NCBI GenBank assembly: GCA_946699065.1
Contig: CAMPDV010000042.1
Location: 744,001 to 808,000, forward strand
DNA: 64,000 bases
Source of the DNA: Loxodes magnus
Taxonomy: Eukaryota; Ciliophora; Karyorelictea; Loxodida; Loxodidae
Direction of reading: 5' to 3'
Shown here piece after piece: positions 1 to 64,000 of the stretch; within the stretch, counting starts at the first letter, position 1, and every line of letters starts with the position of its first letter. A program made the translations under genes and the position numbers. Below the pieces are notes generated by a model. The model was not told the DNA's origin. It saw only the letters and a list, made by a program, of their open reading frames with translations, and made no database searches.

Positions 1-301
1 ATTTTCGCATTAGCAGATAGCCCCCATTATTTTAATAACTTTTGGAAACTTAAATAAAAAATGAATAAGTTTAATTTACTTTCTTTATAATAACTCTTTC
101 TTCAAAGGCTATAAATTTTTAGTCAAACTTCTCTTCTATTTTTATTTACTTCTATTTCAAAATTTAATCATTTCAAACTATTTCTTTTCGATGTTCTTCA
201 GCTTCATCAAATTACTCATTTAAATTTGTTTATTAAGAGCTGGTAATATTTCTAATTAATACTTCTATTTTTTAATGAACTATTTCTGAAATTCAATACA
301 T
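1..301 (-). CDS. partial gene, unknown charged protein, cut by the window edge
   Basis: Unrecognised. Reading TAR as Q and TGA as W, an open frame runs from an ATG at 299-301 to the left edge with a soluble, charged composition (stretches such as NLNEQFDEAEEHRKEI and KIEEKFDQKFIAFEERV). The other two frames of this strand give poorer protein. The start is uncertain: another ATG at 343-345 lies in a different frame and could belong to an upstream exon joined by a small intron. The 3' end lies outside the window. No domain is visible; it could be a helical or coiled-coil protein. Confidence 0.4.
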
Positions 302-345
302 CTAACTATAACTTTTTTCTACTTTTAAAGCGAAGACTATCCCAT

Positions 346-2719
346 TTAAATAAAAAATGCGAATATGCTTTAAAAATAAATTTATCATTTAAGTTAACTG
401 ACTAAATAGAATTAAAGCTAATACTCTTCTTAATGCTTTACTATAATTAGATACCTAATCTTATCTATTTTATATAGAATTGATATATTTATTTGGTTTG
501 CTTTAAACTATTTTAATTGATAAATTTGCATATACTTGGAGTATTTAACTCTTTATATATTTATTAAAATTGTATATATAACTAAGAGTAAAAGTAGCAA
601 CTAAAAGATATTAAAACTATTAGTACATAATATTAGATGGAGTATGCTTACAGTTAATTAATCCTTTAAATCCAATTACTTTAATATTAGATGCTGGTAT
701 GCTTATTTCATTTACAACCATAAATTAATTATTTAACAACCACCAGTTTTTCCACTTGATATTAACAAACATAAGAGAAGGTTCTTTTATGCAAAATTAA
801 TAAAAAGTAATATTAAGGATAATAAATAAAGTAAGAAAGAAGGTTAATTTTTAAGAGCGAGTGACTTTAAATTAAATCTATTATTAAGAAAAAGAAAACA
901 AATTGAATATTCTAATTATCTTATAACAAATAGATATGCTTATAATAATTAAAAAATTAAATTATCTAGCAAGTATTTCAATAAAATATATAATATTTAA
1001 TTAGTTATTTCAGAGAAATAGTCAAAACTATAATTTCTTATAATTATAATATACACAGGTAGCTTAAAAATTTAAGTATTTATCATTATAAAATTGTTAT
1101 CGATTTTCCATTTCTCTTATTGAGCATCGCTAATTTAATAGAAATTAATAAACTAGAAAACTTTTATATTTTACCCTTCTAGAGTTATATAAAGTTACTA
1201 TTCTAGTCTAAAAGTTTATATTTATAGCTTAAAATTAAATATTAATTGAAATTATGTCCTAATAACTTTAAAGCAAATATAGCTTTTTTTTAATTTTTAT
1301 GCAAACAGAGCAAGATATATTAATTTTGCTAAACTCTTTAAAATTTAAATTTAAAAGCATAAAATTAGCATATAAGTCTGTAGTTTAAATAATTATAAGT
1401 ATAAACTTTTGCTAAAAATAATTATTTTAAATAAATTAAATAATCTATATATTTAAAGCAAATACTAATTAATGGCAATCTAATGAATGATTATCTTTGC
1501 TTAATCTTTTAATTTTTATTTATAAAAATAGAAATTTCAATCTTATTTTTAAATTGATCTGTGTATCAATATAATAATGATAGAGATATTATTATACTAA
1601 TATAAAATTTATTAGCTAATTCTTTAACAAAACAACTTTAAATAACAAAAATAAATTAAATTAATTACGTATTTTTAAATTAAAGTACTAATAAATTTTA
1701 AATTTATTAGTACTTCATCTATATTAATTATATATTTAAGAGCTTTATTTTACATCTCCTAGAGTTTTTATTCCTTTTTAGTGAAAATAAAAATAGAATT
1801 AATCTGAAAATGACAAATAATTATGAATATAAAGTTTATTAAAAGTTTACTGCATATACAATTAATAAATTGCTATAATTAAATCTCCTTCATTTATTAT
1901 TCAAAAAGATTTCTCTGTTATCCTTTATTTTTGAGAAACTCCTAATATAAGAATATTTTCTTAGCTTATTGTTCTCTAACATCTTTCAAAAATATACCTA
2001 AAATAATTTTTTAATATAAATTATGAGTTTTTAAATAGTCAGACATAAGATTATATTTAGCAATAAACATATAAAAGTATCGTCATTGAAAAAATAAGCT
2101 ATCATTTCTAATATTTCTAAAAATATTATATTGTGTACTTAGTAATAAAAATTAATTTATCTCTTATATTTTCTTCTTCAATTGAAGCAAATATATCTAG
2201 CTCTTTTTTCTCACAATAATAAAAACCTAACTTCTATCAATATTTTCAGTTTATTATTCCTGAGATTATCTTTTTTATCTTAATTTAAAAATTATCAAAC
2301 TTAAAAGCAATTAGTAGTCATTTACAGCAAAATATTAACTAATTCTTACTCTAAAAAGATAGAATAAGCCTTAGATTTGTATAAAAAATAAACGAAAGAA
2401 TAAATAGTTATGTAATAATAAATTATGAATGAAAAATGTTTATTATTTTAAACTTCTATTCCATTATATAAGCAAATAATCCTAACTTTTAACTAATTTA
2501 ATAATAAATTTACAGTATAACTAATGCTTATAGACTACTTTTGTTTATATAGAGAATTATTTAATAGATAATATTTTAAAATCTACTTAAATTATATCAG
2601 AAAAACTACTTTTTTCTGTAATTAGTTATTTTTATTACACTTGAATATCTAATAAGGAAAAAACTTATAAAAATGAAATCTATATTATATTTAAAGGTAT
2701 TAATTCCTTTTTTCTTAAA
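346..2719. other. intergenic, mostly featureless AT-rich DNA
   Basis: No convincing gene. A near-repeat of about 20 bp (consensus TAATATTAGATG followed by TATGCTTA) occurs twice, near 640 and 682. Between about 1900 and 2330 one minus-strand frame reads somewhat like protein (for example IEEENIRDKLIFITKYT) but has no start, motif or codon signature that sets it apart from background; it may be a gene relic. Confidence 0.5.
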
Positions 2720-3404: not shown

Positions 3405-5945
3405 ATGTATTATACTAAACTAAAGAGATGCAAATATAAAAGCTAAAGATAATTTATTAAAGCTTCTAAGTTATTATTATTAAATTACTTTCCTTTGCTT
3501 TTATTAAAATATTAATTGGTATTAAGTAACTTATCCAAAATAGAAAAAATTAATTATGAACTATCTCCTAAAATAAAATTAAGTAAAGAAAGCTTTAAAA
3601 GAATTATCTTTATTGTGAATTATTTAATTGCTAAAAATGAGAAAAGTTCAAATATAGATCTTATCTATTTTGATTCCTTTAGTGATTATGATTCTGTATT
3701 CATTGTTTTGAGTCTCTTCTTCAACTAATAAACAAAAAGACTTTAAAAAAATTATTTAATAATAAAACTTTACAAGCATTTAGTTGAAGAAGAGAGAGAA
3801 AAATGAAAGCTTGCTTATAAGAGAGCAAAAAGTAAATAAAGCAAATGATCTTTAAGAAAATAACGTTAGCTAGCAATAGAATTTAATAGTCTCTGAAATA
3901 AAGGGCTAAAAGCAACTAATTCAAAGTGAATTTTTCGCGAAATTTTTTAAATAATCGAAACAATATTACTCTAGTCCTTAGAAACAACTAAGGGTTGCTT
4001 CTGACTATCCTTCCCTAGATTACCCAGAAATTACTCTAATGTTTTGAGTTAAAAGAGATAAAATATCAGATTCTATTTAAACTTTAATAAGCAATAACTT
4101 GTGAGGATGTGGAAGATAAATATTTCATTGAGGGTATTCAATATATATAATAAAAAATAAATTATTTATATAATTTGGAAACGATTAGACATGCTAGACA
4201 TTCAAAATTATGAATAATTTAAAGCTTGAATAATGAAATCATCTAACTTTTGTATTTACTGCATTAGGATCAAGCTATTCTGAGCAGTAATAATTATAAG
4301 TTTATCTAAACGGAAAATTGAGTTTCTCTAATTATAATGTATATCGTCTGATACAAGGAGGATAATCTTTAAGAATTGGTAGTTGAATTATTTCAAAAGA
4401 GTCAGTTAATAGAAATTTAAAAGAAAAAGTTGGATTTCACTTTAGAGGATGGTTTGACGATTTCATTTTAATAAATAGATTACTTCAATAATAGGAAATC
4501 TTAAATTTAATTTAAGGAAAAATTATCAAAGCAAATAAAGTTTTTTACGCAAATTTTGAACATGAAAATGAAAAAACATTGTAATTATAGAATCATGGTA
4601 TTCACTATATTTTTAATGAGAAAACTAATTAAATTTTCGAATAAATTGGAATTTCTTTAAAATATAATGAAAACCCTTGAAAAGTCAACTTAACGACTAA
4701 TAGAGCATTCGCTTTGGGAGAAAATTCTGATTTAATTGAGAGAGATAACAATGAAGGAATGGAATACTATAATTGATGAAATAAAGACACTTGAAATATT
4801 TCTGATTTTTGACTTTTAGACCCATCCCCTTATTATAAATAATTTGAAGACAGTTATAATAAAATAGCCTAAAGTCTACCTTAATTTTTTATTCCAATAT
4901 GTCTAATAACTTGTAAGCGAACTGACTATTTATCATAAGTTTTAAACTCTTTATTATATGTACGAGAGATTAATAGTACATTAATTGTTATTTCATAATA
5001 AGGGAATTGAAGTTAAACTACTAAGTTAATTGAAAATTATAAGTAGAAATTGAATATTGTCCATCTAAAGTATCCAGAATTACCAGATCATTTTGAGCTT
5101 AAAACTCCTATTCAGAAATATCTTTATTAAAGAATTTAGAGAATTAACAGACATATTATGTTTATAATGAACTTTACACTTGGATATATGAAAGCACCAG
5201 TCGCTCTTTATACTGAAGATGATTTTATATTTTCTCAAGATGCTTATGAATTTATGGTTTATTCATATAAATTCTGAATTTAGAATCCTTATTTAGGTAA
5301 ATCAGTGAGTTTCGTTGCATTAGGAACTCGATATTATCCAAAATGTGAAGAAAAAGAACCTGATCCAAATAAAAAATGAAACTGGTTTGGATGAGGAGTA
5401 CCAGTAGCTTCATATTTATTTCCTGCTTATGTGTTTCACACTTTTGTTGAGCATTTTCAGTGATAAGATCACTCTTATTGATTATAAGACGTTTTTAAAC
5501 AAATATACAACAAACCTTTTGTTGCTGCATACACTTAGAGAGTACTTCATTTAGCTTATAATAGTTCAACAGTTTTAGATTAGAAAGAAATTAAAGATGA
5601 AAAAATGTGGAAATAAATCTGAAAAGATTAAAAGAAAAGGAAAAGAATGTAAAAATTAATCTTAGGAGTTAAATTTACCACTCAAAAGCAACTAATTTAC
5701 TAAAATAATACTAATGAAGAGACATTTTAAAATCTTATTTCTCCTTGTATTGTTACAGATATTAATAGATGCAAGTAACTTGTTGAAAGAAAAGACGAAG
5801 TTCTTAAATGGATAGACAGTTATTTCTTCCAGGATTTCAGAAGTAAGTTGAAGAAATTCAAACTAAAGAAACATTTATAATAATTTAATACAAGAAATTT
5901 AATTTTATAAGAATAACTTAACTTCTAAATTTCAATAACTATTGA
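3405..5945 (+). CDS. LamG/ConA-lectin-like domain fused to a GT13 (GnT-I/POMGnT1-type) glycosyltransferase
   Basis: Likely Golgi type II membrane enzyme adding GlcNAc to glycans. The N-terminus holds a hydrophobic anchor (about residues 24-45, SKLLLLNYFPLLLLKYQLVL). Residues about 190-355 look like a LamG/concanavalin-type lectin fold (PEITLMFWV, WNHLTFVF, HFRGWFDDFILINR). From about 486 comes a GT13 catalytic domain: ICLITCKRTDYLSQVLNSL, the metal-binding acidic motif E596-D597-D598 (LYTEDDFIF), then WFGWGVPVASYLFP and WQDHSYWLQDV, matching GnT-I/POMGnT1 order. Many W are TGA. Two introns are inferred from frame changes: 3832-3856 (25 nt) and 5843-5868 (26 nt, GTAAGT...AAAG). With both removed the gene is 830 codons ending at TGA 5943-5945. 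Without the second intron the frame has no TGA before the opposite-strand gene. The start and the first intron are the least certain parts. Confidence 0.75.
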
Positions 5946-6055
5946 AAAATAAAATTTACTGATTGATAGATATTAATAGTATATTATAATGAAAGTTTAT
6001 TTATTTAAAGTTTTAAAGATTTGTGAGTATTACAATAAATTAAAAATTTCTAATT

Positions 6056-11111: not shown

Positions 11112-11167
11112 TTATTAAGAAGATATAAATTTGAAATTTAAATAAAAATACTAAAATAATTATTTTG

Positions 11168-12764
11168 TCAACTGAAAGCATTTAAAAGCATTTCTTTAAA
11201 TTCTTTGAGATCAACCTAAATTATAAATTATCTAACATACCTCTCCATTTCCATCTTTATCGACTTCTTTGATTATTTCTTGCCAAACACTCTCTTAAAT
11301 ATTCTCTTCACCTCCTAATAAATTTTTGAGTTCTTAACTGCTAATACTTCCGCTTGCATCTTTATCAAATGCTTTGAACGCAGCTTCAATTTTTTCCTTT
11401 TATAATATCTTTTTTCTATCTAGAGTAGCTGTAATAAACTCTGTGAAATCAATAAAGCCACTGCCATCAATATCTACTGCCTGCATAATTCGATTAACTT
11501 CCGTTTCAGCTTCTAAACTATCCATATGCTTTCTAAAACCTTCATATAATTCTTCTTTAGATAATTTTCCATCATGATTAGTATCAAGAGATGTAAAAAC
11601 ACGTTACATTTCAGATTTCTCTTCTTTTGAAGTTAATTGAGAGACAATAAAAGTGGTAACAGCTTAAGTTAATTTTCAGTTGCTCCTAAAGTTTTTTAGA
11701 TTTTGTAGTGACTATTATGCAAGTGGTTCTTCAACTATTTCTTTAGTAACCCTTTCTTTAATTCATTTATGATTAAGACATTCAGATGCATTTGGACGTT
11801 AATCTGGCTCCATTATTAGCATTCTCTTAATTAAATCTTTAGCATCCTAGCTTATTGAGTTTCAAATTAAATCATCAAAACTAAAGGCTCCTTTTTGCAC
11901 TTTTTAAAATATTACATCATCGGAGTTTCCAGAAAATGGTGGATAACCACACAAAAGTACATATAAAATTACCCCACATGATCAGATATCACATTTATAA
12001 TCATATCTTCTATTTAATACTTCAGGAGCAATATAATAGGGAGTTCCAAATTTCTAATTCATTTTTCTGCTGGGATCGAAAAAAGAGGATGTTCCAAAAT
12101 CTATTATTTTAATTGATGCACTTTCAGTTTTATCTTCCAAAAGTAAATTCTCTGGTTTTAAGTCTCTATGGACTATTAATTTGGAGTGGCAGTATACAAT
12201 AGCTGATAATATTTGCTCCATAATTTTTGCAGCGTCAACCTCTGAAAATTTTGTTATATCTACTATTTTATCAAATAGCTCACCTCCAGTACATAATTCT
12301 GTAACTAGATGATAATTACGTTCATCTTCATAAAATTCAAATAGTCTTAAAATATTAGGATGATCCATTGATTTCAAAATTTCTACTTCTGCAAAAAATT
12401 GTTCACTTCCTTATGTTTTCTCCACACTTTCTTTTGATATAGTTTTAATTGCTCTTTGAGTTTAAGTTGGAAGATGCAAAGCACTTCTAACTTTACTAAA
12501 AGCTCCATCTCCAATAACTTTTAGTATTTTATAATTTTCTTTAAGTTTTCCTGCCTGCTTAATGATAAAAGTGCCAGAGTTTAACTTTAATCCTTCTTTA
12601 TTAGTTACATGCTATTTTGCCTATTCTTATTTCTTAAATGATGATAATGACGAGTTTTGAGTTTTAGGCAAATCAACACTTTAAGGTTTTTTTAATTCAG
12701 TTGTTGCTTTATTCTAGTGCGCTTTATCAATATTTGCACCATTCTTTCCTGTAGAACAACCCAT
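11168..12764 (-). CDS. calcium-dependent protein kinase (CDPK), 523 aa
   Basis: Ser/Thr kinase directly activated by calcium. The N-terminal MGCS suggests myristoylation of G2 and palmitoylation of C3, hence membrane targeting. Kinase domain about 77-335: glycine loop GDGAFSKV, Lys107 (RAIK), HRDLKPEN 199-206, DFG 222-224, GTPYYIAPE, and D-I-W-S-C-G with W261 encoded by TGA. An autoinhibitory/CDPK-activation segment follows, then four EF-hands at 394-405, 431-442, 467-478 and 502-513, each with the usual acidic ligands. One 25-nt intron (11216-11240) interrupts the fourth EF-hand; without splicing that hand is lost. ATG 12762-12764, TGA 11168-11170. The exons sum to 524 codons. Domain order and length match the apicomplexan, ciliate and plant CDPK family. 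Confidence 0.95.
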
Positions 12765-16467: not shown

Positions 16468-17298
16468 ATGACAATAGGTTGTGGAGATGTTATTTTTACT
16501 ACGGTAATATGCTACTTTTCTATAAAATTATTCTAAGACTGGGATGAATTTTCATGCTAAAATCCTTTAAATGGTTGGTTGCTTGGGTCTTACTTATCTA
16601 TAGTTGGTTTAAAACTGTGTTTTAAAGGATTTAGCGAAGCTGAAGAAAACAACAATCAGAAACTAGGAATATTCTGCAGTTTTGTATTATTAGTAGTTTT
16701 ATTTCCCTTTATTACAATATGAACTATAGTTGGCACCATATGATACACAGCTCTTATTGGGTCTAATTCTAGATGTGTAATTTTTTATTTTAGGTTCCTA
16801 AAAGTACACCTGTTTGGATCATATTCTTTCTTCTCTGCTGTTTTTACGTTCTTTCGGGAATTTATATCACAATGATGATTTATGGAATAGTTATTTTGAT
16901 AAAAGAGATAAAGCAATACAGAGAACAAAGAAGAATAGTGCAGTAAAGCGCTTAATTACTAGCATAAGGACTTATGTCATAAGAAGAACTCAACTAGGAT
17001 CCAGATTTAAGATAAGCTCTTGAAAGGGGGTTGAGCTAAAAAGAGATTACAATGATTCCTTTATACAAAATCAATGAAAAAAATTAAAATAACATGAATG
17101 AATGCCCAATATGCCTTTCTAATATTTCAGTAAGGTATTATTTAGATCGAAGAAAAAATTAAGCAACTACCTATTTGTGGACATTTATTTCATAAAAAGT
17201 GCATCGATTGTTGGTTAAAAACTAAAGCATTTTGTCCGTTATGCAGGAATAATGTCCGAGTTTCAATTAATAAAGTAAGCTCGGTGAATGAATAGTGA
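16468..17298 (+). CDS. membrane-anchored RING-H2 finger protein, 265 aa (probable E3 ubiquitin ligase)
   Basis: ATG 16468, TGA 17296-17298, introns 16777-16793 (17 nt) and 17130-17145 (16 nt). Spliced length 266 codons. Several hydrophobic segments come first (GWLLGSYLSIVGLKLCF, FCSFVLLVVLFPFITIW, WIIFFLLCCFYVLSGIY, TMMIYGIVILI). A cytosolic part follows with the C-terminal RING-H2: CPIC, then CGHLFHKKC, then a WLK segment and CPLC (C-x2-C ... C-x-H-x2-H-x2-C ... C-P-x-C). The second intron falls inside the first zinc loop. Such TM-RING-H2 proteins usually ubiquitinate membrane or secretory-pathway substrates; the substrate here is unknown. TGA is read as W twice in the TM part. Confidence 0.85.
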
Positions 17299-18564: not shown

Positions 18565-19800
18565 ATGTCAGAAGAATCAGAAGATTTATTGCCAAATAAT
18601 TTTTAAGATGATTTCTATGACCGCATGTTTTAACTTATTTAAGAGTCCTTGGGCGTTCCTTAATAAGAAATTCCAAGGTGGTTTTTAGAAATTGCAGTGG
18701 CTACCATTCCAGAGGGATGGAGAATAGATAAGCATAATGATAAGTATTACTTTTTTTAAAACGAAAAATGAAGCAAAAAGCATCCTGCCAGACTCACTCT
18801 TTCTCTTGCTTTGTAGATTTTTATAAGCAATAAAATAAAAGTGAAACCAACTATAGCTAGAAAGTTAGTTGAAGTTCATAAAAAATCCAAAATGCTTGAA
18901 AATAAATGAGGCAAAGCTGTAAACAAAAAAGGTCAAACTGTATTTGTGAATAGGGAAACAAAAGAATAAAGTTTTGAAGATCCTAGGGTAGCAAGAGCTA
19001 AAAAGTTGATAGAAACATTAGTTAATAAATTAAAATAAAAGGAATAAAAAAATATGGAAGCTGGTGAGGACAATTCTATGATAAAGAGAAAAAAGGATGA
19101 AAAAAGTATTTAAGAAGAAAATTCTGGTTAATTTGATAGGTCGGAAGATATTGAAATATCTCAAATCAATCAACCTTGAAACAATAAGCAAGAAGTCGAT
19201 CCTTCTGTAAACTAATTAAATGGCTAAGTAAATAAAAATAAGAATGAAAATATTAATGTTATTGATAAGGTAAGAAGCATGAGAAACTAGAATCCTCAAA
19301 AAAGCTTACCAGTTTCTTTAGGATCCAAATTGTAAAATACCCAAATAAAAATCATTCCAAAAGTTGAGGATTCATTTGAAGCTCCAATGAAAAGTATAAG
19401 GTAGAATAATTAAGATTTACAAGATTTCGAGTAATAGATAGTATCAAATACTAAAGCCTAGCCTAAAATAGCTCTTTAAGGTGCTGGATTTAATGTGTAA
19501 AATAATTTTTATTAGCCAGCTTATTCAGCGAAAATTGCTAATTCTAATATAAAATATAAAAAAGTGAAAAACACAAGCAATGCTGAAGTGCAACCTAAAG
19601 ATTCTATCTTAAAAGATATAAAATCTGCGTCTCACTAGTCTCCAAATAAAAGCACCGATTTTTAGCAATAAAAAATTAACGATTTAAATTAATCGAGGTA
19701 AAATATCAGTAGAAATGAAATTAGATCTAGAAACACAAAATTAAGTGCAATTGCTAATACGAACATTATGCAAAAGATTTAATTGTTATCTATTTATGAA
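18565..19800 (+). CDS. WW-domain protein with CEP164-like N-terminus; 3' end uncertain
   Basis: ATG at 18565 opens MSEESEDLLPNNFQDDFYDR and then a helical part and WW domain (IPRWFLEIAVATIPEGWRID, KYYFFQNEKWSKHP; about residues 37-73). The second signature Trp (W69) is TGA. This arrangement, a short helix before a WW, is the one seen in CEP164 and related ciliary WW proteins. A second, weaker WW-like unit lies at about 112-140 (WGKAVNKKGQ...SFEDPR), with F in place of its second Trp. The rest (about 150-410) is low-complexity, polar and K/Q/N/S-rich, probably disordered. Coding character is clear to about 19790; the first in-frame TGA is at 20026-20028, so a short 3' intron or a longer tail is possible. 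It converges with the VASt gene. Confidence 0.75.
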
Positions 19801-20088
19801 ATATTTCATTCAATGTATATAAAAGTATTAATCTTATTTAAAAATTAACTAAATCATCCTATATCTACTCAAATTCATACTTTTCATATGATTTATTTCA
19901 TATTTATTGATATCAAGGATTGGATTTTCTATATAAATTAATTTAACATGATAACCAGTTCGGGTATTCTTCTAGTTACATAATTGCTAAAAGATATTTA
20001 ATATCTAAGATAGAAATGCTGCTTATGATTCTTTAATATTGAAGATACATTTAATAGAATAAGAAGCGAACTAGACTAAATTAAATGT

Positions 20089-22520: not shown

Positions 22521-23540
22521 TCAGGTTTTAAATGTTGAACCTCGTTTTTTATCAAGATTTTTCCAGTCAATTTCGAAAGGAAGTAAAGAATTTCTTAAAT
22601 AAAGAGAAGCTCAATTTGGCACTTTGGCCTATATTTTTGCTTCTCCTCTTTAGCCAAATGTAATTCAACCAAAGCCTTTTATTCCTAAATCTCAATCACT
22701 AGCTAGCTTTTTAGTAGTTTCTATTACAAAAGTTTCTTCTTTTCATTCTACTTCTTTCTATAAAGCAGGGTACAGTAAAGCTCCTGCATGCTTTTAGATC
22801 ATTTCTTCGGGTCTGGAAGTTCTATGGACGGTAATTTTGCTAGGTACTTATACTGAAGCAATAGTATAAGCTGAACTCAATAACTTAAAGGATGCCATAG
22901 CTCCGAGAAGTAAGGTTTATCCTGGTAACAAAGGAACGTTTATAGGCTTTATACGAACTTATTAAAGGCCTCATCTAATAGCATTTCAGTTAGGTTAGCC
23001 AGGACTATCAAATAAAAATCATTTATTTAATGGAAACTCAATAAAGCCTAAAGTAGTCCCTGGTAAAGGGCTTGCAGCTGGAACATATTATGATTAAATT
23101 AATTGCTTAATGAGAGTACTTTTGCCAGTGTTAGTATGACCTACCACATAAGTATCCATTGTTACTAAATCTCTTAAGCGTTAAATACCCCAACCCATTT
23201 TTGCGCTAATAAGTTCTATCTTCAAATCTTAATTTTTCACTCTAGATTTCACTCAATTCAAAATTCTTTAAGAGCTAGCATTTTTAGGAAGTAAATCTAT
23301 TTTATTAACTAATAAAACTGCATTTCTTCCTTCTAAAATAGAAGGGTCAAAAGTTGATTCAAAGTCTATAAGATCAATTAAGTAAAAAAGCTAAGTATTA
23401 TATTTAGGAATCTACTATAAGATATCAAACTAATGAATAACTCCTTCTCCCTTTCCATAATGAATTATTTAAAAACACCTTTTGCATAACTTATGATCTG
23501 GCTCAGGTTCAAAATCCGCTCCGCAGCCTGGACACTTCAT
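22521..23540 (-). CDS. circularly permuted GTPase, YqeH/NOA1 (RIF1) type, 339 aa
   Basis: Ribosome-assembly GTPase family. ATG 23538-23540 to TGA 22521-22523, 340 codons, no intron. An N-terminal zinc finger is visible (C3-P-G-C6 and C19-K-R-C22), then the GTPase motifs in permuted order: G4 NKID 79-82, G5 SAK 112-114, G1 P-loop GHTNTGKS 134-141, G2 PGTT 160-163, G3 DSPG 178-181. The C-terminal third (about 200-339) is the variable domain of YqeH/NOA1 proteins. Members act in small-subunit assembly of bacterial or organellar ribosomes, so a mitochondrial role is likely, although no clear targeting peptide is seen because the zinc finger starts at residue 3. Confidence 0.92.
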
Positions 23541-25558: not shown

Positions 25559-28500
25559 ATGAAAATAGCTTTAACTATTAGTATGTTACTATGTACTTTA
25601 GCTAATTGAAAATAATTTCCAAATACTTTAAATCCCCCTAATAAACGATACTAGGCTTAATATGCTACAAGTTAGTAATACGGCTACTTCATAATTTCAA
25701 TGGGAAAAGCGGAGAATATAATTTATGATGACACATGAAAGTTTGATATGCTTGAAAAAAAATGATATTTTATGGCTTTAACTAGTGAAGTTTAGCCGTA
25801 ATCTAGATTTGCTGCTAGTACTGAGTTCATTGAAGAAGAGTAGGCAATGATTATGTTTGGAGGATAGTCCGATTATGGACTATGTAATGATTTATGAAAA
25901 TTTTATGTTTAGAGTTAGTAGTGAGAACCTATAGTGGTAAGAGGCATCAAACCATAAGTGCGACAAGGATCAGGCTCTTATATAATTTAAACGGAAGGAA
26001 GCTAATTTCTATTTTTTATTGTTGGAGGATCAGGTTTCTTTAATTTTTTTAATGATGTTTGGATTTACAACTCAAGTTCAAATAGCTGATCTTAAATAAA
26101 AGGAAATGGAACTATTCCTTAGCCTTAAAATTTGATGTCTATTTTAGTAGATGATAAAGAATTAATTTTTAAAAATGCTGGATGAATTGAGGATTAAGAT
26201 ATGTATATCCTAAATTTAGAAACTTTAAAGTGAAGAAAATAAGTTGTAAATCCACATCCAGCCGACTAATATTTGTGTGGTTCTTGCCTTTTTAAGGAAA
26301 AAAAGGAAATGTATTTGGTTATGGGATGATCTGATTATTTGGGAGATTTGGATGAAATTTGAAAGTTAGATTATTCAAATCACAATGATCTTAAATGATA
26401 GCAACTTAAAGTAGAAAATTCATAACTATTTTCAAGGAGTAGTTTGAATGTTATTTGCTTTAATAATAGCATTTGGATTACATGTGGCTAAACTGTCTCA
26501 GGATTTAAGAACGATCTAGTAGTTTTAGATTTAAAACATTCAGTGCTTAAGTGAAATGTTATTCAAGATGATTTCGAATCACCTGAGCCTATTTCTTTTC
26601 ACAGTATGAATATTATATCTGGAATAGCTTATGTATTTGGAGGAATTAATTCTGAGAGTAAGGCTTAAAACAAGCTTTGAAAACTTGATTTAGAAAGATG
26701 AGAATGATAAGCACCTAATGTGAAGGGTGAAATACCTTAAAGCAGATATGGACACATTTCATCAGTACATGGAAATTTCATTTTAGTTTGAGGAGGTTAA
26801 GACGAAACTAATTTGTTTAACGATATGTATAATTATAATACTCTTACGTAAACCTGAAAAAAAGTAGAATAAAAGATAACAATAACATCAAGACGTGGTG
26901 CTTGTGGATCTATGGCAGGAGATGATTTCTGAATTTATGGTGGCTAAACTTCTTCAGGAGTTTCAAACGAGTTATGAAAATTTAATCTTGGCAAAAATGA
27001 ATGAACTTTAATAAACAAAGATATGATATTTGCTGGAAAAATATTTTATTGTAGCCTTTATTCAAGTTAAGACAATCTTTACATATTTTTTGGATAAGAT
27101 TCAGGTGATTATAACAATGAGTTTATTTTTGTCTATAATTTGAAAAAAAATTATTTTAAAAAAAGAAAGAGTAAAATAAAGGGAAGAGCTAAATCTGCTT
27201 ATAGTGCTGTCGATAATAATTTAGCCTTTTTAGGAGGCTAAATGTGAGGAACTATTCCCGATGATAGTTTCTATTTCATAAATCTAGAGCAAGATACGAT
27301 ATAGAAGTTAAATAAACAAAATTAAGAAAAATGGCCTCCAAAAGTATACGGCCATGCTATGGCTTACTATAAAAGAATGATTTTGATTTTTGGCGGAGTT
27401 TATGTTAGAGGTAATGTAAGTATTGTTAAAAGAGCTTAAAATGAATTCTGAATTTATGAAATCCCTAGAACATGCAGAAAGAGCGATATATTGTGTGGAT
27501 GGCCTTGTAGTTATGGCACTTTTGAAAATTAAAAGGATCAATGCGAACTTTGTCCTTAAGGTACTTATTCAAATTAAAGTCATTAATGCCAAAAATGTCC
27601 TATAGGAATGGAATAAATCAATTCAGGTGCAACTTCTTTCAAATAATGTTAACCCTGTGCTGAATAATACTATAATAACAAAGAAGGAGCGTAATTTTGC
27701 ATAGCTTGCCCACAAGGATTTTATTGTCCAGTCGGATCGACTTATCCTATTCAATTTAATAATAAAGCTGATGAATATTCAAAATAACCATAAAATTGAA
27801 AAAATCATTCTAGTGATATACAATAATATAACTTCTGAATTATCATAACGTTGATGATAATTGGAGTCTTAATAATAATTACAATCTTAATAAAAAAGCA
27901 AATCTATGACTATATGTAATCTTTGGATTTATTTGATTCTAATCATAATTATGAAATAGGATAGTCAATGAGACTAATCAAAACTTCCATAGGGGGACTC
28001 TTTTCAATTCTTTTCTTTATTTTAGTTCTAGCTTTGATTCTTAGTACTTTGCTAAGTTTTTATATTGATAATGTAGTTGAGAGCAAGGCATTAATTCCTT
28101 AACTTGTAATGAAAGAATCTTATCCAACTATAGCAGGAAACTTTTATGTTATTTTAAAAATTAATTACTACTAAGGAGAATGTCAAGCTTCCCTAAATTT
28201 GAATGAATATTCCAAATGCCATGAAAATATTTATTTTATATATGATGGGTTTATTCTAGATACCTAATATGGATACTGAGATTAAATTCTTTGTAAGAAA
28301 GAAGAAGGAAATTGTTCCGTGTAGATAAGCTGCAAGTAATGCTAAGTCTAGGAATCTTCTTATATTTTGCTAAATCTGGAAGAAGAGAATTCTTATTCCT
28401 CCTTTATCTAATTAAATGTTACTTCAACTTCTTCAATTCCTAATGAGTTTTCCTCAATTATAAGCAGTATTTATCCAGGGACTGATATGCTATTTAGAGG

Positions 28501-29611
28501 CCCTGATCCAAGTGTATTTGAAGTGATTGTCATCCCATCTGCTTACGAAACAAATGTTGCTAGTAATAAATAGTATGATAGAACTACAGGATATCATATA
28601 ATGAGTTCTGGTAATTTTCAAAAAGGCTCATAATTTACAAATTAAGAAGTTTAATTTTATAGAAATCTCTACATTAGGATAAATTTCATTCCTAGTACCA
28701 GCTCTCTCATGACATATTAGACTATTAAAATGAACTATCTTAACTTGATTTCATCTATTCTAGGTTCTGTATTTGGACTAATGGGAACAGTTGGGATAGT
28801 TATGAGACTTGTTGAAGAGAAAAAAATCAAAATAAAAAAAAGAGCTATTAAGAAGAAGAAAAAAAGGAATTTCAAGCATTTAATTGGATAAATCAATTAT
28901 TTGAGAGACTATTGATAGTTTAGAATGCCTAAGAAAAAAAAGAAGCAACCATTTTCAGTTAAAGCATTCTTCTAAGGTCTTAAACAAAGAATGAGAAAAA
29001 ATATAGTAGCTCCTATTGACTTCGAGACTTCCTAGCCTGTTTTTTCATAATAAACTTCTCAGCCAGATAATATTAAGAAATAAATTAAATTGCTAAATAA
29101 GCAATTTGCGAATTGAAATACTATATAAAGCCCTAGAAATAGTGAATTCATAAAATATAAATTTCCCACTTCCTCGAAAACTAAATCTCAATCACAAAGT
29201 GGAAATTAAACTCCTGACATAAAAGCTTATAGTTTTGAAGATTGATTCTAGAGAAATTTTAATATTTTAGTACTGATATTATTTTAACTTATCTCATATT
29301 TTATCTAATCTTATGAATATTCTAAATTAAATATGTTCTACTTAATGATTAATATTCTTTCCATGGCTATTAAGGCCTTTGCTTTTTATCTCTATATCTA
29401 TAATTAAAAATTTTAACTATTATCTATATTCTTCCAATTATATCGAAAATAAGGAATAACGATAAATCTATTTGTCTTTGCTTACTTTATTATATAAATT
29501 ATTTAACTTAAACTAAATTTTCTATTATTTTAGAAGGATATTAAATTTCAATAACTACCTAAAACTTTAAATATGTTAAGAATAAAGGATGATTTAATTA
29601 GCAAACGCTGA
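25559..29611 (+). CDS. large Kelch-repeat, Cys-rich, multi-TM surface protein, 1350 aa
   Basis: ATG 25559 to TGA 29609-29611, 1350 codons in one uninterrupted frame with dozens of TGA = W. Signal peptide (KIALTISMLLCTLA), then Kelch/galactose-oxidase-type repeats over about 30-620 (blades with FGGQSDYGLCNDLWKF, VGGSGFFNFFNDVWIY, FGGIN, YGGQTSSGVSNELWKF, IFGGVYVRGN). A Cys-rich ephrin-receptor/GCC2-like stretch follows (CELCPQGTYSN, CQKCPIG, CQPCAEQYYNN, CIACPQGFYCPVG), then a TM segment near 760, another near 815-840, an extracellular loop, and further TM segments around 1055, 1235 and beyond, with a K-rich cytosolic stretch. This layout is common in large ciliate surface proteins of unknown role. 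The C-terminal 100 residues and the exact stop are less certain; no in-frame TGA follows for several hundred bases. Confidence 0.85.
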
Positions 29612-40203: not shown

Positions 40204-42042
40204 TCATTGTTTGGGCTTATTGACCATATGAGTTAGTAAATCCTTTGTATATTTAAGTCTTTTACTCATTTCTAAATCTTTATTTTCTAAAGCTACGTTT
40301 AAAGGAAAGAAACTTCTTTCCCCCTTTTTGTTCACATAAGTAACTTATTTTGTATCTGAACTTAAAATTATTTCAGTATGGTCCTGAAAATTAACTTAAA
40401 CAAGTTTGTTTGAAAGTCGGAACATGATAGCATGTTTTGTTCTTAGTCACTTTTTAACGTAAGGAGAAATTGTTTCTTCATTCTTTTTTTCTTCTTCTGA
40501 CATAGTAACTTCTTATTATTTAATATCTGTTTCGAGATAAGAACGAAAATGTTAAAGAAGAGTTACTTTCTTCTATAGAGTTTTCGGATAATCTGTTAGA
40601 GTGAATTGCTATTAAACATCTAGTCTGTCACTTCCTCTTTCGTAGAAATCAAATTTACTAAAAATTAAAATTTACTATCCATTTGAATGTAGAACAATCT
40701 TAGTACTGTCATTAAAAAACACCCCAATCGCTTAGTTACTTAAAATATATCCTAAACCATACTTACTACTGTAGTCTACTCACTTTTTAACCCAAATTGA
40801 TTAAAAGATTTGATTTTCTCCTTAAACATAATTTTGTTAGTCAATCGATTGCCTTGCAGATTGAATTTCTCTATTTAAATTTTACTATTCAATTTGAATA
40901 AACTGCTTATCTTCTGTCAAAGCTTTTTAATGTTTAGATTATTAAGTCATAGGAAAGTCAATTTTTATTTCTTTTTAGATAATGTCCTGAGGATTTTCAC
41001 CATTCATATATATATTATCAAGTTAATTATCTTTGGTCTATTTAGTAATTTACATTGGAGTAGTGCATAAAAATTTAGAGTCTTTAGCAGTAGGTGAAGT
41101 TAAAATTTGAACATTTCCAACGAACTGCTTTAAATAGCTTGCACTAGGTGGACAGGCAAGAGTACTTGCAGGAAGTAATTTTGGTATTGTTCAACCTTGA
41201 AAGAAAAATTCACTATCAACAATTTCAGTTAAACTAGGCCTTTTACCAGGGTCATTATTTAAAATTTTAGTTATTAAACTTTTAGCACATTCTGATATTG
41301 GAACATGTTCAGGGAACGTATAAGCATTCATTCTGATTCTTCGATAAGTTGTCTTTACATCACTTGTTTCAAAAGGAGGTTTGCCTATTAATAAAGTGTA
41401 TATTATAACGCCAATTGCCCAAATATCTACTTCATAACTATGCCCTGATTTTCCATCAAGGATTTCAGGAGCTATGTAATTAGGAGTTCCACATATTGTT
41501 CTTTTTTTCTCTCCTTCATATTCTAACTTTGTAGCAAGTCCAAAGTCCCCTATTTTAATTTCCATTTTTTCACTTAGAAATAAATTACCAAGCTTAAGAT
41601 CTCTATGAATAACTTTATGTTTGTGTAAGTACAAAGAGGCTTCTACTATCTAATTTACATAGCATTAAACTTCTATTTCAGTAAGTCTTTTGCGTCTACG
41701 CAAAAGTTCATTTAAAGTTTGATTAGGGCACATTTCTAGTACTATATAAACATTATCAGCATCCTCAAAAAAATGTTCAAAGTTAACTATATTTTAATGC
41801 TTCACACTTCTATGAATCTTAATTTCGCTCATCAGTTTTTACTTGCTTCTAGCTTTAGTAAGATTGGCTTTTGCTACTATTTTAACTGCATATTATTTCT
41901 TGGTATTTAAATCTAAGAACTCATAACATCTTGCAAATCCTCCTTTTCCAAGAAATCTACCTCGCTAATATTTTTTGACAGCAACTTCTCCATTCAATTT
42001 AATGATTTTTTCTTCAATTATAACATTCTCTTTTTCAGCCAT
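40204..42042 (-). CDS. PLK: Polo-like kinase, 612 aa
   Basis: Mitotic Ser/Thr kinase. ATG 42040-42042 to TGA 40204-40206, 613 codons, no intron, about the length of human PLK1. Kinase domain about 26-280: [13 protein letters not shown], Lys54 (AVK), HRDLKLGN 147-154, DFG 166-168, activation-loop Thr182 in [13 protein letters not shown]. Polo box 1 about 416-497 ([18 protein letters not shown]) and polo box 2 about 526-601 ([20 protein letters not shown]). W421, the equivalent of human PLK1 W414 in the phosphopeptide pincer, is a TGA codon. In polo box 2 the pincer His is kept (H555, QDHTE), but the partner Lys of PLK1 (K540) is Glu557 here. TGA after F-Q-G (W284) is also read through. Confidence 0.97.
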
Positions 42043-45124: not shown

Positions 45125-46147
45125 TCAAAGAACGGGATAAACGGGATCTACTGCAACACCACACTATCCCTAAGAAGTTTCACTTTCAGTTCTTAGAATT
45201 CTAATAAATCCCTACTCACCCCAACCAACTCCCCAGGAGTTTTTTATTTTCCAAAACATCTATCCATTATCAATTCCATATCCTACGGCCAAGACAGCAT
45301 GATCTAAATTTATATGACAATTAGACAATATACCCTCATTATAGAATTGCCAAGTGGAAGCATCAACTAAAATAGGAGTTGGTCTTTGACTAACTGAAGC
45401 TTTAAGAGCGAGTTCGTTTTTTTTAACATTAACATAATTAGACAAGTATCCCTATCCAAGTTTTTCTTAATACCAGCAACTATTGTCATTTCCTTCGTAT
45501 GGATAATCTGATTCCTTTTCAAACTAAAAGTCCATAAAATATTCATAAGATTCTTCAAGTAGTCCTCCTGCACAACCTTTGTTTCCGTATTTACGAGAAC
45601 AATCTACCAATTATTATTCAGAGAAATCTAGTAATTTGCCATTTTTAAGATAATAAGCTGATTCAATTCCAGCAATAGTTGCAAAAGCCCAGCAAGATCC
45701 ACATCTTCCCTGGTCTCTTACTGGATTTACTGCTCCTTTTTCAACCCAGTCTACTGAGTCAGGCAAATTATCCATCTAGTCATTTGATTTCATTCTTATA
45801 TCATGATTTCTAGGAATGAGATTCAAGTATTGCTCCTTAAATTCTTGAGCAGTTAAGTCTGCAAACTAGTTCAAAGCTAATTTGTAAGAATAGCCTTTTT
45901 GATTTTCGTTTTAAATTAATAAGTAGTTTTAATGGAAGATATCATATCTCTAAAAGAACTCCTCTTGTCCATTATAAGCTTTGTTATTCATTTTAACGTA
46001 ATTCTAGAATAGTTACCAACTTTCTTAGTTGCTTTCAGATTGCAACCTAGCAACTAAAAATCTTGTTTATCCTTAATAAAACATGAATGAAGCAAGTCCA
46101 CAAAAAGCAATGAAAAGAGCCAAACCCAATATTTTTCTATTCGCCAT
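45125..46147 (-). CDS. papain-family (C1A) cysteine protease with I29 propeptide, 340 aa
   Basis: Lysosomal/phagosomal or secreted cathepsin L-type protease. ATG 46145-46147 to TGA 45125-45127, 341 codons, no intron. Signal peptide or anchor at about 6-25 ([18 protein letters not shown]). The I29 inhibitor propeptide spans about 43-108 ([27 protein letters not shown]). The mature domain starts near [20 protein letters not shown]. The catalytic set is complete: Q146, C152 (GRCGSCWAF), H283 ([11 protein letters not shown]), N303 ([10 protein letters not shown]). The conserved SEQQLVDCS has both Gln (178-179) as TAA, clear evidence of the code. The GCAGG motif is also present. It looks active. 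Confidence 0.96.
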
Positions 46148-59496: not shown

Positions 59497-62400
59497 ATGA
59501 GTGAAGAGTTATAAGGTGTTTAAACAGTTTTGAATAAGATAAAAACTTTATGGATATGCTAAATTATTAGAATAATAATACTCTTTTATTTAACCTTATA
59601 AACTATGAAAAATAGCTCTAGTCCTAATTTATCGAAAGAGAATAAAACTGCTGAGATTCAAATTAAAATGAACTAGACTGAGACAAACTTCCCTTTTTCT
59701 TAACGTCCTGGAAGTAAAAACTTATAGCCATCCTTAAGGTTTGATTTAAGTACTCTTAATTCTATTTCTCTACAGAGTAAAGGAATGGGGCTTTCTCCTC
59801 TATCAAGGTTCAAGAGGAAATTAAAAAAGGAGCATTAAAATTAATCTTACTCTTGGCCTTAAGGTTAGGGATTTGGAAATCCTTTAGAAAAGCAAGTTTA
59901 AGAGACAATAAATAAGAACAAGATCTATGGATATCCTCTACCTTACTTTACAGCTAATAATGCTCATTAGAACACTACTTACATACTCTCTCCAATCAAA
60001 AACAAAGTAAAAGATTTAACTTATTTCGTTCAAAAAACGACCAAGCAAGCAAAAAAAAGGGATTCAAAGACTATTTTAAAGCCTTCTGAAAATGTAAGTC
60101 TCTAGAACTACAGAATAAACAGAAATCTGAGAGTCTAATTTTCAATTTAATGCCAAGATAAAGACTAAAAGGAAGAAACTAAATTAGTTAGCGAATAATA
60201 GAAAAAAGAGCAATAAGGTAATAAAGAAACGAGAAAGGTTTAGTAATTTAAGTGGAAGAAAAAGTATGAAGTAAACCTTGATTATAGAATACAAAAGTAG
60301 CTTAAACATGAAAATATAAAACTACCTACTCTAGTAAATTCTCACGAGTAAGAAGATCTTTAATGCATTCATACTGAACCTAATTAGTAGTCAAAAAGCT
60401 TCGATTTATAGTAGATTTGCTTATCCTAGAAAAATCGAAATATTTCCTAGAATTAAAAGTCTTAAACTGGCTATAATTCAAAAATTATCTTATAGAGCTA
60501 GATCCCTTTAAACACTTCTGGAAAGCATGGTTAACATCTAAAGGTAAAAAAGAGTCTTCTGAATGTAAAGAAGCAATTGCTGCAAGCTGTTTTTTGAGAA
60601 AAGCCAGTCAAATAAGCGACTCTGTATCATATATTGAAAGCATGAGCACTATTTTAATTTATTATTAAATCAAATTACTTTGCTTATACATCCATAATTT
60701 AATAGATGCTTCATATTTAATAATCAAGCATTCAAATAAAATAGTCTAAAGACATAAAGCATAAAAATACTTAAGTAAAAATCTAAAATTTATAAGCCTT
60801 AAAAGGCAGTTAATTTAAACTATCTGCTATCTACTTAGGAATTTAATTTAATAGACTATACTAGAGAAATCTAGCCAGGTCTAGGTAAAGAGAGGAGTAA
60901 GAAAGCAGTTGCAATAAATTGTCTTATATCATAGGCATATAATCCATCAAATACTGTAGTTATAACTACATATAATGCCTCATAATAAAGTAGCATTTCA
61001 ATAGTAGAAGAGTCTTGAGAGAACTATTAGTGCATAATAAGATAGCATCAGTTATAAGATATAACAGTATAAGGTAGAGGTATGAAATAGAAGAAATTAA
61101 AAGTGAATATTGGTATGAAAATGAATTTAGGAAATACTTAAGAAGTTAATTAAAAATAATGTCCTTAAAATCTTATTCTTAGAAGCTAGAAAACCTTATC
61201 TCGATTCTGCTTACTGCTGAAGAGCTTTTATTCTCTATAGCGCTTCCTTAAAGTATAATAGAAAGATACATTTCATTACGTAACCAACACTTTTAAAAGG
61301 CATAAATACCAAGTGATGATTAATTTGTTTTTAAAGTTAGCCAACTATAGAGATAGGCTAGATAAGAAAGTGAGAGGTAAAAGCTTTAGGAAGTTAGCTT
61401 TTTGAAATGTAGTTAGGAGAATGAAATGAAAGAGTAGAAAGCGCATTTATTAAAGATATCCTATTAGTGAATAGAAAGAATTGATCATTCTCATGAACTA
61501 CTATAATTCTCCAGGAAGCTGCTAGTAAGCTTGCTTTAGAAATAGTATAACTGGATTAGGTAACTAAATAAAATCTTTAATTCAACAGATGAGCAAAAAT
61601 AATTTTAGCCATGTATTGAAGATCCTTAATTCAATAAAAGATAGTCTAGTTAAGAAAATTATAAGGAAGCTATTGACTGATATCTGCTTCTAGAAGAATA
61701 GCATGGTAACTTCCTTTAGCAATTCATGCAAAAGATAGAAGAAATGGAGGTTTGTTTTCTAGACTCATCAAAGAAGTGACAAACTATCGTAAAATCTTAA
61801 GAAAATCTGCTGGATTAAATACGTACAGAGTTATAAACGAAGAAGGAGTAAGTCTTGATATCTTAGCAGAACTCTATCAACTAAAGCGACTCAATTTACT
61901 AGAAAACTTAGCAGCTTGAAGAAAAGTACGAAAATGCTTATTCGCAACTTAAATTACATTATGATCTATAGATAAAGAATGTTCAAATATAATGCTAATA
62001 GCAAATCAAAAAAACTGAGTTTGAACTTAACCAAATCAAATCTAAGTATGAAGACTTAATTTCACAGAACTAAAAGGAATAGGAAAAATTAGTTACTGAT
62101 TCATAGAAAAAGGAAACATAATTAAAGGATTAACTCAAAGCTGAGGCTTAGAAGACTAAGGCTTATTACGAAAACTAGTTAATAATTTTAAAGCAGTCTA
62201 ATTAAAATGCTCTAGATAAGGTACTGACTGATTTTGATTCTTCCTAGCAAAGCAAATCAAAAGAAATTTCTAATTTAAAAGAAAAATTTAAGAAGCAGAA
62301 GAAAGAAATCGAAGAATAAAGGTAATCAGAGAAGCTAAATTTGTAAAACTAGTATGAAACTATAATTAGCCAGTTAAAAGAACAGATTAGTAAACTTGAA

Positions 62401-63105
62401 GTTCAATATTCTAAATAAGTAGAAAAGTTAGAAAAGGTTAACACAAAAGAAGTAGAACAATTGAAAATACAGAACGAGCTAGAGAGAAAAAGTTACGATA
62501 AAATAATTAAAATATAGAAGAAGATGTAAACACCTACAGCTTTAAGTAGTGCTTAATAAAGCTAAGATTAGAATGATAAGAATTATTAGACTAAACAGAA
62601 TGCAAGCTCAAGATTAGAGTATAACGACTTATAAGAATCTATGCTTCAAAATGCAGAATCAATAAATAGCTTTTTACAGCATGTAGAGGATACTGTCATT
62701 AAGCTATTTTCTAAGTTTAAAATTTCTTTTCGTCAATCAACGCAAAAAAAAGTTTCATTTACTTAGTAAATTGAAAACAAAGAATAGGAGGACAATCAGT
62801 CTCTTCTATATAAAGCATCAGAAGCCTTTTAGAATTTGATAGAGTAGTTTTCTAAAGTTATAAGGGATAACAACTGGTTAATTGAGAGACTTAGTGATTT
62901 TGGAACTGAAAATAAATAGTTAAAGTAAAAATGCTTTTTAAGCTAAAAAACTAAAGCAAAATCATCTAGATAAATATCAAAAAGTATGGGGGATATTAAA
63001 AAGGAGTTAAAGCATTTTAGATAAATAAGTAAAGAATTTTAGGTAGCAAGGAAGAGTTTTTTAAACGAAATTTCTGAACCTTACAAACCTTTGCTAATTT
63101 AATGA
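59497..63105 (+). CDS. large coiled-coil protein, 1202 aa
   Basis: Unrecognised. ATG 59497 to TGA 63103-63105, 1202 codons in one frame without intron; an in-frame ATG at 59605 (MKNSSSPNLSKENK) is an alternative start and avoids a hydrophobic first stretch. Residues 40-400 are polar and basic, rich in S, Q and K. Residues 400-750 hold several R/Q-rich helices, some IQ-like (IKQHFNSRRVLRELL). Residues about 830-1060 form a long coiled coil (QLEEKYENAYSQLKLHYDLQ, KEISNLKEKFKKQKKEIEEQ, SQLKEQISKLEVQYSKQVEK). A further helical C-terminus ends NEISEPYKPLLIQ. A centrosomal, basal-body or cytoskeletal role would suit this layout but is inferred only. Confidence 0.75.
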
Positions 63106-64000
63106 ATTAATATTTAATTAAGCGACTTATATTTAAATAAATAAGAGAGGCAATCACAAAGATGTTTATATTAATATATAAATGAAATTCAAAATAAAGA
63201 TAGCTAAAATAAGCAAATACATGATAGAAGCTAAGTATATGAATTATACCTAAAGTAATTTTTTTCCTTTCATTATAGAGCCAAAGCATCAAAAAAAAAT
63301 TTCTAGTAATTAATCATAAAAGCCTCTTAATTTAGTTACTGTAATGAGGAATGGTACTCAGTATTATATTATAAACATGCTTTTAACTTTCTCATATCTC
63401 TGTTTTAATGATCTACAAAAGAAAAGAGGGAATATATTAAAGGTCTTAAATATCTAACATGTAAGGCAACTAACTACATACTTAGAGATAAATATCTTCT
63501 TATCAATACTAAAGAAAATTTTGAGAGCTAAATGAGGAAAAACGTAACAAACGCTCAAACTATAAAAGAGTAAACTAGCTTTTAGTATCTAACTATATTT
63601 AGATCTTTCTACATATCTCTATAAAACCAAACAAAAGAGCATATCATTCACTTTGAATAAAAGAATATATAAAGCTAATTAAGTTTAAAAGCTAAATATC
63701 AAAAGTAAGCATAAATCTTACTAGCTAAGCTTAAATAGATCCTTATTAATAAACATACTTGATTGTATAAAATATTCTATTAACTGAATATGAGAGAGCG
63801 AAATTGGTAAATCCTATCTAATTTGATATTAATTAACAGATTGAAGATTAAATTAATAAATGTGTAAATACAAATTTGGATTAAGTAACTAGCTAGAATA
63901 ATTTAGTTTGTATTAGCTTTATATTTTATAGTAAGCGATTATGAAATCAAAAAATATTTAAGATATCACAATTATGAATAAAAGGCATTTTTCACTTATG
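63106..64000. other. right-hand end, intergenic or start of a further gene
   Basis: Mostly AT-rich. From an ATG at 63408 one plus-strand frame reads weakly like protein to the window edge (MIYKRKEGIYQRSQ, RKFWELNEEKRNKRSN, EYERAKLVNPIQFD, QIEDQINKCVNTNLDQ). No domain or clear stop is seen, so it may be a partial gene or background. Confidence 0.3.

What the first reader, a model, noticed from the sequence alone, without database searches (positions are those of the whole stretch)
1..64000. All three standard stop codons used as sense; TGA is both Trp and stop
TAA/TAG fall at conserved Gln positions (papain SEQQLVDCS at 45611-45616 on the plus strand) and TGA at conserved Trp positions (CDPK D-I-W-S at 11982-11984; PLK polo-box W421). 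The same genes end at TGA. How the cell tells a sense TGA from a stop TGA is not obvious from the codon itself; in karyorelicts, position near the mRNA 3' end is thought to matter. About 27 genes here give test cases.
Basis: partly seen in the sequence, partly recalled or inferred. Interest (0 to 1): 0.8.

Follow-up and report, generated by a model that had tools for sequence, protein, structure and literature searches.

The report
Known ciliate code reusing stop codons
This stretch of ciliate DNA reads all three usual stop signals as amino acids and uses one of them, TGA, both as tryptophan and as the stop; that is real, but it is the code already published for this group of ciliates and, almost certainly, for this very genome.

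Summary
Inside genes TAA and TAG are glutamine and TGA is tryptophan; genes end at TGA. In the window's CDPK, three of four internal TGAs sit in columns that are Trp in 118-120 of 120 homologs; a Kelch gene aligns with a Stentor protein across 26 of its 27 internal TGAs. The papain motif is at the stated coordinates but on the minus strand. The window lies in a 705,730,643-base assembly, the size published for the Loxodes magnus macronuclear assembly (706 Mbp), whose ambiguous code (NCBI table 27) is in print. Genome checks agree: ubiquitin has TAA/TAG at Gln positions, actin ends KCF-TGA, and tRNA-Trp(CCA) has a four-base-pair anticodon stem, a published way of reading UGA as Trp. The window repeats the published end-of-gene pattern: TAA thins out before stops (9 seen, 19.6 expected, p=0.004); TGA goes the same way without significance; TAG does not. 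AT-rich DNA follows most stops, but not actin's, so composition alone is not the rule. A rediscovery of a known code: low interest.

The parts
11168..12764 (-). CDPK gene (kinase + EF hands) with 4 internal TGA, ending at TGA 11168-11170; 25-bp GT..AG intron at 11216-11240
   Evidence: Pfam Pkinase and EF-hand hits; homolog columns; intron restores DKDGNGEV-DLKEFKEMLLNAFS-TGA; C-terminus within 5 residues of 111 of 120 homologs
11982..11984 (-). sense TGA = Trp of the kinase D-I-W-S motif
   Evidence: W in 120 of 120 homologs
11862..11864 (-). sense TGA = Trp
   Evidence: W in 118 of 120 homologs
11763..11765 (-). sense TGA = Trp
   Evidence: W in 118 of 120 homologs
11676..11678 (-). sense TGA in a column that is not Trp in relatives (R 61, Q 40 of 120): the exception
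45125..46147 (-). papain-family (C1A) protease gene, no internal TGA, ends at TGA 45125-45127
   Evidence: Peptidase_C1 220 bits; C-terminus within 5 residues of 87 of 120 homologs
45611..45616 (-). two tandem TAA at the conserved Gln-Gln of SEQQLVDCS (minus strand, not plus)
   Evidence: Q in 118/120 and 108/120 homologs; strand check
40204..42042 (-). Polo-like kinase gene, 3 internal TGA, ends at TGA 40204-40206
   Evidence: Pkinase and POLO_box; two TGA align with Trp of a solved polo-box chain, the third with Tyr of PLK1
25583..29245 (+). Kelch / ephrin-receptor-like membrane protein gene with 27 internal TGA, 56 TAA, 18 TAG; last TGA 29243-29245
   Evidence: Pfam Kelch domains; aligns to Stentor SteCoe_15331 over query residues 5-1124 of 1220, 26% identity, a span holding 26 of the 27 internal TGA
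27797..27799 (+). sense TGA that a permissive composition model mistook for a stop; homology continues through it
   Evidence: split, read through
22521..23540 (-). YqeH-like GTPase gene, 8 internal TGA, last sense TGA 30 codons before the stop
   Evidence: MMR_HSR1 and YqeH-like_C
16468..17298 (+). RING-finger-like gene (motif read by eye, no Pfam RING hit obtained) with 17-bp and 16-bp introns in the model, ends at TGA 17296-17298
   Evidence: gene models with intron lengths 14-60 and 15-28 bp allowed
19780..19782 (+). candidate TAA terminator of gene 18565-19782 (next in-frame TGA is 82 codons further on)
   Evidence: chosen when TAA/TAG stops are allowed at a 3.5-nat cost; no 15-28 bp GT-AG intron starting at 19601-19800 leads to a TGA within 25 codons; one search had a 32-bp intron to a TGA at 19799

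Best explanation
The window is macronuclear DNA of the karyorelict ciliate Loxodes magnus, which uses NCBI code 27. UAA and UAG are Gln. UGA is read as Trp along the coding sequence, most likely by a tRNA-Trp with anticodon CCA whose anticodon stem is loosened to four base pairs, and as stop where it lies close to the mRNA 3' end, where release factor eRF1 outcompetes the tRNA, probably helped by poly(A)-bound proteins. Shown here: the sense meanings, the TGA ends, the tRNA shape, and TAA thinning before stops. Inferred from the literature: the tRNA's decoding role and the poly(A)-proximity mechanism. The species is inferred from assembly size and code.
For: Sense TGA at Trp columns; in the 60 best-scoring of 136 listed kinase domains, 58 TGA and 106 TGG codons behave alike (65.5% and 70.8% at conserved Trp columns), while TAA/TAG avoid Lys and Glu columns as CAA/CAG do. 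Six ubiquitin stretches have TAG at Q40, Q49, Q62 and TAA at Q31, Q41, Q62 (residue numbers recalled). Ends at TGA: CDPK and papain, actin KCF-TGA in 30 near-identical loci, one polyubiquitin RGGC-TGA-TGA. tRNA-Trp(CCA) with 4-bp anticodon stem, in arrays, as PMC13092985 (passage) says was found in Loxodes. Last 20 codons of 20 genes: TAA 9 vs 19.6 expected (p=0.004), TGA 0 vs 2.3 (p=0.10), TAG 6 vs 7.4 (p=0.37), the pattern printed for L. magnus. Assembly size 705,730,643 vs published 706 Mbp.
Against: One CDPK TGA lies in an Arg/Gln column. TGA depletion before stops is not significant here and is partly confounded with how stops were chosen; the p-values are not corrected for the several codons and window lengths tried. 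Coding GC is 28.5% here against 33.5% in the paper's transcripts. Actin's stop is followed by 36-40% GC DNA, so AT-richness right after the codon is not required. One ubiquitin stretch reads RLRG-TGA, one Gly short of the usual end. The assembly carries no name. No RNA or protein data could be examined. Whether a tRNA-Trp(UCA) also exists could not be tested (not answered; 77 of the 177 pattern hits were not listed).
Confidence: 0.95

Rival explanations
1. Condylostoma-type code (table 28): all three codons are both sense and stop, chosen only by position.
For: TAA, not only TGA, thins out before stops, and with TAA/TAG stops allowed 1 of 26 closed gene models (3.5-nat cost) or 4 of 26 (1-nat cost) end at TAA or TAG.
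Against: In the same test 25 of 26 and 22 of 26 still end at TGA; the conserved C-termini tested end at TGA; the one homology-proved intron is 25 bp and 10 of 15 modelled introns are 16-19 bp, against 15-16 bp reported for heterotrichs.
Confidence: 0.04
2. UAA is a minority terminator as well as Gln in this genome (two ambiguous codons).
For: TAA depletion before stops; candidate TAA end at 19780-19782. I recall, without a call, that Seah et al. 2022 reported a small minority of possible UAA stops in karyorelicts.
Against: A single robust candidate, with an alternative 32-bp intron model ending at TGA 19799; PMC11441545 calls UGA the only stop codon.
Confidence: 0.3
3. Internal TGAs mark decaying pseudogenes or selenocysteine sites.
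For: None found.
Against: TGA sits at Trp columns, 35 of 60 fetched kinase domains carry one, and in the Kelch gene the frame with homology continues past 26 of them; the window has no Rfam match at gathering threshold, so no SECIS element of a family held there.
Confidence: 0.01
4. A syndinian dinoflagellate like Amoebophrya ex Karlodinium, which also uses all three codons as sense.
For: Similar shares of the three codons: 64/27/9.5% TAA/TAG/TGA here (from the counts) against 58/32.3/9.7% in PMC12005148.
Against: Very short modelled introns, a Kelch protein whose only hit was from Stentor, and an assembly size equal to L. magnus.
Confidence: 0.01

Closest known systems
Loxodes magnus nuclear code, NCBI table 27 (PMC11441545; section 9 and passages read)
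   Same: TGA = Trp and stop; TAA/TAG = Gln (recalled for table 27); very short introns; AT-rich 3' flanks; depletion of UAA (and in direction UGA) but not UAG before stops; assembly of 706 Mbp
   Different: Coding GC here 28.5% against 33.5% in the paper's transcripts; I found no other difference in what I compared
Parduczia sp. code (Swart et al. 2016, PMC4967479; passages read)
   Same: Same meanings of the three codons; UGA declines near ends there
   Different: UGA is 0.12% of codons there, 0.76% in the window
Condylostoma magnum code (PMC4967479; passages read)
   Same: All three codons are sense; context-dependent stop; near-cognate tRNA-Trp(CCA) (no nuclear UCA form detected there)
   Different: UAA, UAG and UGA all terminate there; here TGA is the main or only stop
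Blastocrithidia nonstop code (start of the abstract of PMC12153298; passages of PMC13092985 and PMC12005148)
   Different: UAA/UAG = Glu and UAA is the ambiguous stop

Membership tests
Karyorelict code (NCBI table 27) | UAA and UAG encode Gln | tested here: met
   Ubiquitin Gln positions, kinase columns, papain QQ. Within the window alone TAG was unresolved.
Karyorelict code (NCBI table 27) | UGA encodes Trp | tested here: met
Karyorelict code (NCBI table 27) | UGA is the stop | tested here: met
   Conserved C-termini of CDPK, papain, actin and one polyubiquitin. Whether it is the ONLY stop is open.
Karyorelict code (NCBI table 27) | Coding UGA and UAA, not UAG, depleted about 20 codons before the stop | tested here: inconclusive
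   TAA p=0.004, TGA p=0.10, TAG p=0.37, 20 gene models
Karyorelict code (NCBI table 27) | Stop UGA lies close to the poly(A) tail | not testable with these tools
   No RNA data held
Loxodes magnus macronuclear genome | Assembly of 706 Mbp | tested here: met
   705,730,643 bases against 706 Mbp
Loxodes magnus macronuclear genome | Introns mean 19.3 bp, mode 17 bp, 93% at most 25 bp | tested here: inconclusive
   One intron is proved by homology (25 bp); 10 of 15 modelled introns are 16-19 bp and the model allowed only 15-28 bp; no RNA
Condylostoma code (table 28) | UAA and UAG are also regular stops | tested here: not met
   25 of 26 closed models end at TGA when all three are allowed at a 3.5-nat cost, 22 of 26 at 1 nat
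4-bp-anticodon-stem UGA suppressor tRNA-Trp(CCA) | anticodon CCA with the top pair of the anticodon stem unpaired | tested here: met
   ARAGORN on L132 and L133: 4-bp stem, A:C or T:C at the top pair
4-bp-anticodon-stem UGA suppressor tRNA-Trp(CCA) | it reads UGA in the cell | not testable with these tools
   Reporter assays are cited in PMC13092985 (passage) for other species' tRNAs

The most novel reading that the evidence does not exclude
Loxodes has two ambiguous codons, not one: eRF1 still ends translation at UAA when it is near the mRNA end, so UAA is Gln in the body and a minority stop at the end, which would explain why UAA but not UAG is depleted before stops. Gene 18565-19782 would be an example.
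Probability: 0.3. Interest if true: 0.4.

Novelty: already known. Interest (0 to 1): 0.2.

Why it matters
[quoted passage not shown] This window is a clean example and repeats most of the published signature from raw DNA. It adds a small caution: the AT-rich flank that helps gene finders recognise stops is absent after the actin stop, so composition is a correlate rather than the signal.

Tried and rejected
Rejected: pseudogene or selenocysteine reading; Lys or Glu for TAG. A blind likelihood using the genome's own kinases gave Lys first for TAA and TAG, but its controls failed too: it gave Lys first for CAA, and Gln first for GAA, because most of the residue under test is masked. I judged it invalid and used the conserved-column comparison instead. 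The gene models forced TGA as the stop; one search relaxed that. Intron lengths over 28 bp looked like noise, apart from the 32-bp case named above. Before the stop statistics, 8 of the 27 models were dropped (open, tiny, or unclear end): 1-345, 3688-5851, 18565-20028, 20089-20828, 34111-34236, 43566-43817, 58088-59326 and 59605-60645; one model (9579-12764) was split into the CDPK and its neighbour, which gives 20 genes. PF03463 hit L003 is pelota-like rather than eRF1 by my reading. The search for related loci found no relative in genome contigs or viral contigs; 48 phage records matched the PLK by tblastn, all under 60% identity and uninformative. The +4 base (T after 10 of 20 stops, 13 of 66 sense TGAs, p=0.02) is confounded with coding versus non-coding composition.
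Full report
What was checked. The window is AT-rich (19-29% GC in 2-kb steps) with no tRNA found by ARAGORN and no Rfam match at gathering threshold. A self-trained codon model found protein-coding frames with in-frame TAA, TAG and TGA. Gene models with start, stop and short-intron rules give 27 or 24 genes depending on settings; these models force a TGA stop. In a curated set of 20 genes (8,698 codons) TAA is 50.8, TAG 21.2, TGA 7.6 and TGG 5.3 per 1000 codons; TGA supplies 59% of Trp codons and TAA/TAG 77% of Gln codons if read that way. TGA is 15.1 and 42.2 per 1000 in the two other frames of the same genes.

Sense meanings in the window. The papain and CDPK proteins, with stop codons masked, were aligned to 120 homologs each. 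(The papain homologs had been collected with the unmasked protein; the CDPK and Kelch homologs with masked proteins.) CDPK TGAs fall at columns that are W in 120/120, 118/120 and 118/120 homologs; a fourth falls in an R/Q column. Papain's tandem TAA fall at Q in 118/120 and 108/120. Over 758 columns with at least 60 homologs, TGA is in Trp columns 3 of 4 times (p=7e-6) and TAA/TAG in Gln columns 5 of 28 times (p=1.6e-4). A blind column score gives TAA = Q (11.3 bits, next K 1.0) and TGA = W (14.7, next F -7.0), but for TAG it gives K 7.7 and Q 5.0. My sum of ten Pfam domain scores over five proteins is about 2 bits higher for TAG = Q than K, 4 higher than E and about 40 higher than Y. So TAG was not settled by the window alone. 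PLK: two of three TGAs align with Trp in a solved polo-box chain and the third with Tyr of PLK1. The Kelch gene aligns with Stentor SteCoe_15331 over query residues 5-1124 at 26% identity, past 26 of its 27 internal TGAs (positions), among them one that a permissive model had taken as a stop. At the 23 TGA positions aligned with a residue in the masked comparison, the Stentor residue is W in 30%, Y in 26% and F in 13%: mostly aromatic, but only a third Trp, in a fast-evolving gene with a single relative.

Ends. The CDPK end needs a 25-bp intron (11216-11240) and then reads DLKEFKEMLLNAFS-TGA. The CDPK and papain C-termini match homologs with median offsets of 0 and 1 residue (within 5 residues in 111 and 87 of 120).

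Identity. When the genome search answered, the window proved to be C42:744001-808000 of an assembly of 705,730,643 bases in 7,843 contigs. The Loxodes magnus paper gives 706 Mbp for the macronuclear assembly and states that karyorelicts including Loxodes use table 27, with UGA the only stop and also Trp.

Genome-wide tests. The search listed 136 scored kinase-domain matches (a lower bound); one of them, on C102, has none of the three codons inside. I fetched the 60 best-scoring. All 60 hold at least one of the three codons; 35 have TGA, 59 TAA, 53 TAG. TGA (n=58) is at conserved Trp columns in 65.5% of cases, TGG (n=106) in 70.8%. TAA (n=299) and TAG (n=139) are at conserved Lys columns in 2.3% and 4.3% and at Glu columns in 6.4% and 4.3%, like CAA (3.7%, 5.0%) and CAG (5.0%, 8.3%), unlike AAA (23.4% Lys) and GAA (40.5% Glu). 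The ubiquitin search listed 150 matches; six stretches were fetched and carry TAG at residues 40, 49 and 62 and TAA at 31, 41 and 62, all Gln in ubiquitin (numbering recalled); each of these columns reads CAA or CAG in at least one sister copy. Of 96 actin matches 30 loci were fetched; all 30, near-identical copies, end HRKCF-TGA. One polyubiquitin ends RGGC-TGA-TGA; another ubiquitin stretch reads RLRG-TGA, one Gly short of the usual end, which I did not resolve. A tRNA-Trp-like pattern that allows either anticodon CCA or UCA gives 177 places; the 100 listed all read CCA and lie in tandem arrays. Two fetched copies fold with a four-base-pair anticodon stem and an A:C or T:C mismatch at its top. 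PMC13092985 (start of abstract and passages) states that such a tRNA was found in Loxodes and that it raises UGA readthrough in reporters for other species. Two eRF1 genes on C196 keep NIKS (context HGRAQNIKS) and have FLCENTF where I recall YxCxxxF in other eukaryotes.

How stop and sense may be told apart. In the six genes called homology-supported (class A; the Kelch and RING-like ends only loosely so) the 45 nt after the stop are 7-18% GC against 18-44% after 44 sense TGAs (AUC 0.998); over all 20 genes AUC is 0.95, but the other 14 ends were chosen partly by composition. The actin stop is followed by 36-40% GC, inside the sense range, so a local AT-rich flank cannot be the sole signal. 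Before stops, TAA is depleted in the last 20 codons (9 vs 19.6, p=0.004; last 30: 19 vs 29.2, p=0.02), TGA goes the same way (0 vs 2.3, p=0.10), TAG does not (6 vs 7.4), nor CAA or TGG; no correction was made for the number of tests. That is the pattern printed for L. magnus. Selection against UAA near the end suggests eRF1 can still act on UAA there. Allowing TAA/TAG stops, one gene (18565-19782) prefers TAA at a 3.5-nat cost; at 1 nat two end at TAA and two at TAG, of 26. For 18565-19782 an intron of 32 bp leading to TGA 19799 is the alternative.

Verdict. Sources as I saw them: PMC4967479 (passages), PMC11441545 (section 9 and passages), PMC6935857 (passages; it gives UGA as stop and UAR as Gln in karyorelicts and does not mention UGA as Trp in them in the passages shown), PMC12005148 and PMC13092985 (passages), PMC12153298 (start of abstract in a search listing). 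Seah et al. 2022 (Peer Community Journal) is known to me only from a reference and from recall; the identifier I tried is not held.

Noticed in passing
L004 and L005 (G000:C196): Two eRF1 genes with the stop-reading motif context HGRAQNIKS and FLCENTF; changes from the usual TASNIKS and YxCxxxF (recalled) that may bear on how UAA, UAG and UGA are read.
   Followed up: partly
L066-L095: Actin genes in many near-identical copies; in six of the seven distinct ends printed the stop TGA starts the string TGAGTGAGTGA, which puts a TGA in all three frames, followed by unusually GC-rich DNA.
   Followed up: partly
G000:C67 and C148: tRNA-Trp(CCA)-like genes in long tandem arrays with spacings of about 187 and 241 bases.
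   Followed up: no
window 3688-5880: Gene with a Laminin_G_3 lectin domain (Pfam) and, by eye only, a GNT-I-like glycosyltransferase part; its end is unclear (a 16-bp intron to TGA 5851, or tandem TAA at 5878-5883).
   Followed up: partly
window 9579-11111: Gene made of repeated L-R-K-S/T-x-F-x-L-G motifs with no convincing Pfam match, directly downstream of the CDPK on the same strand.
   Followed up: no
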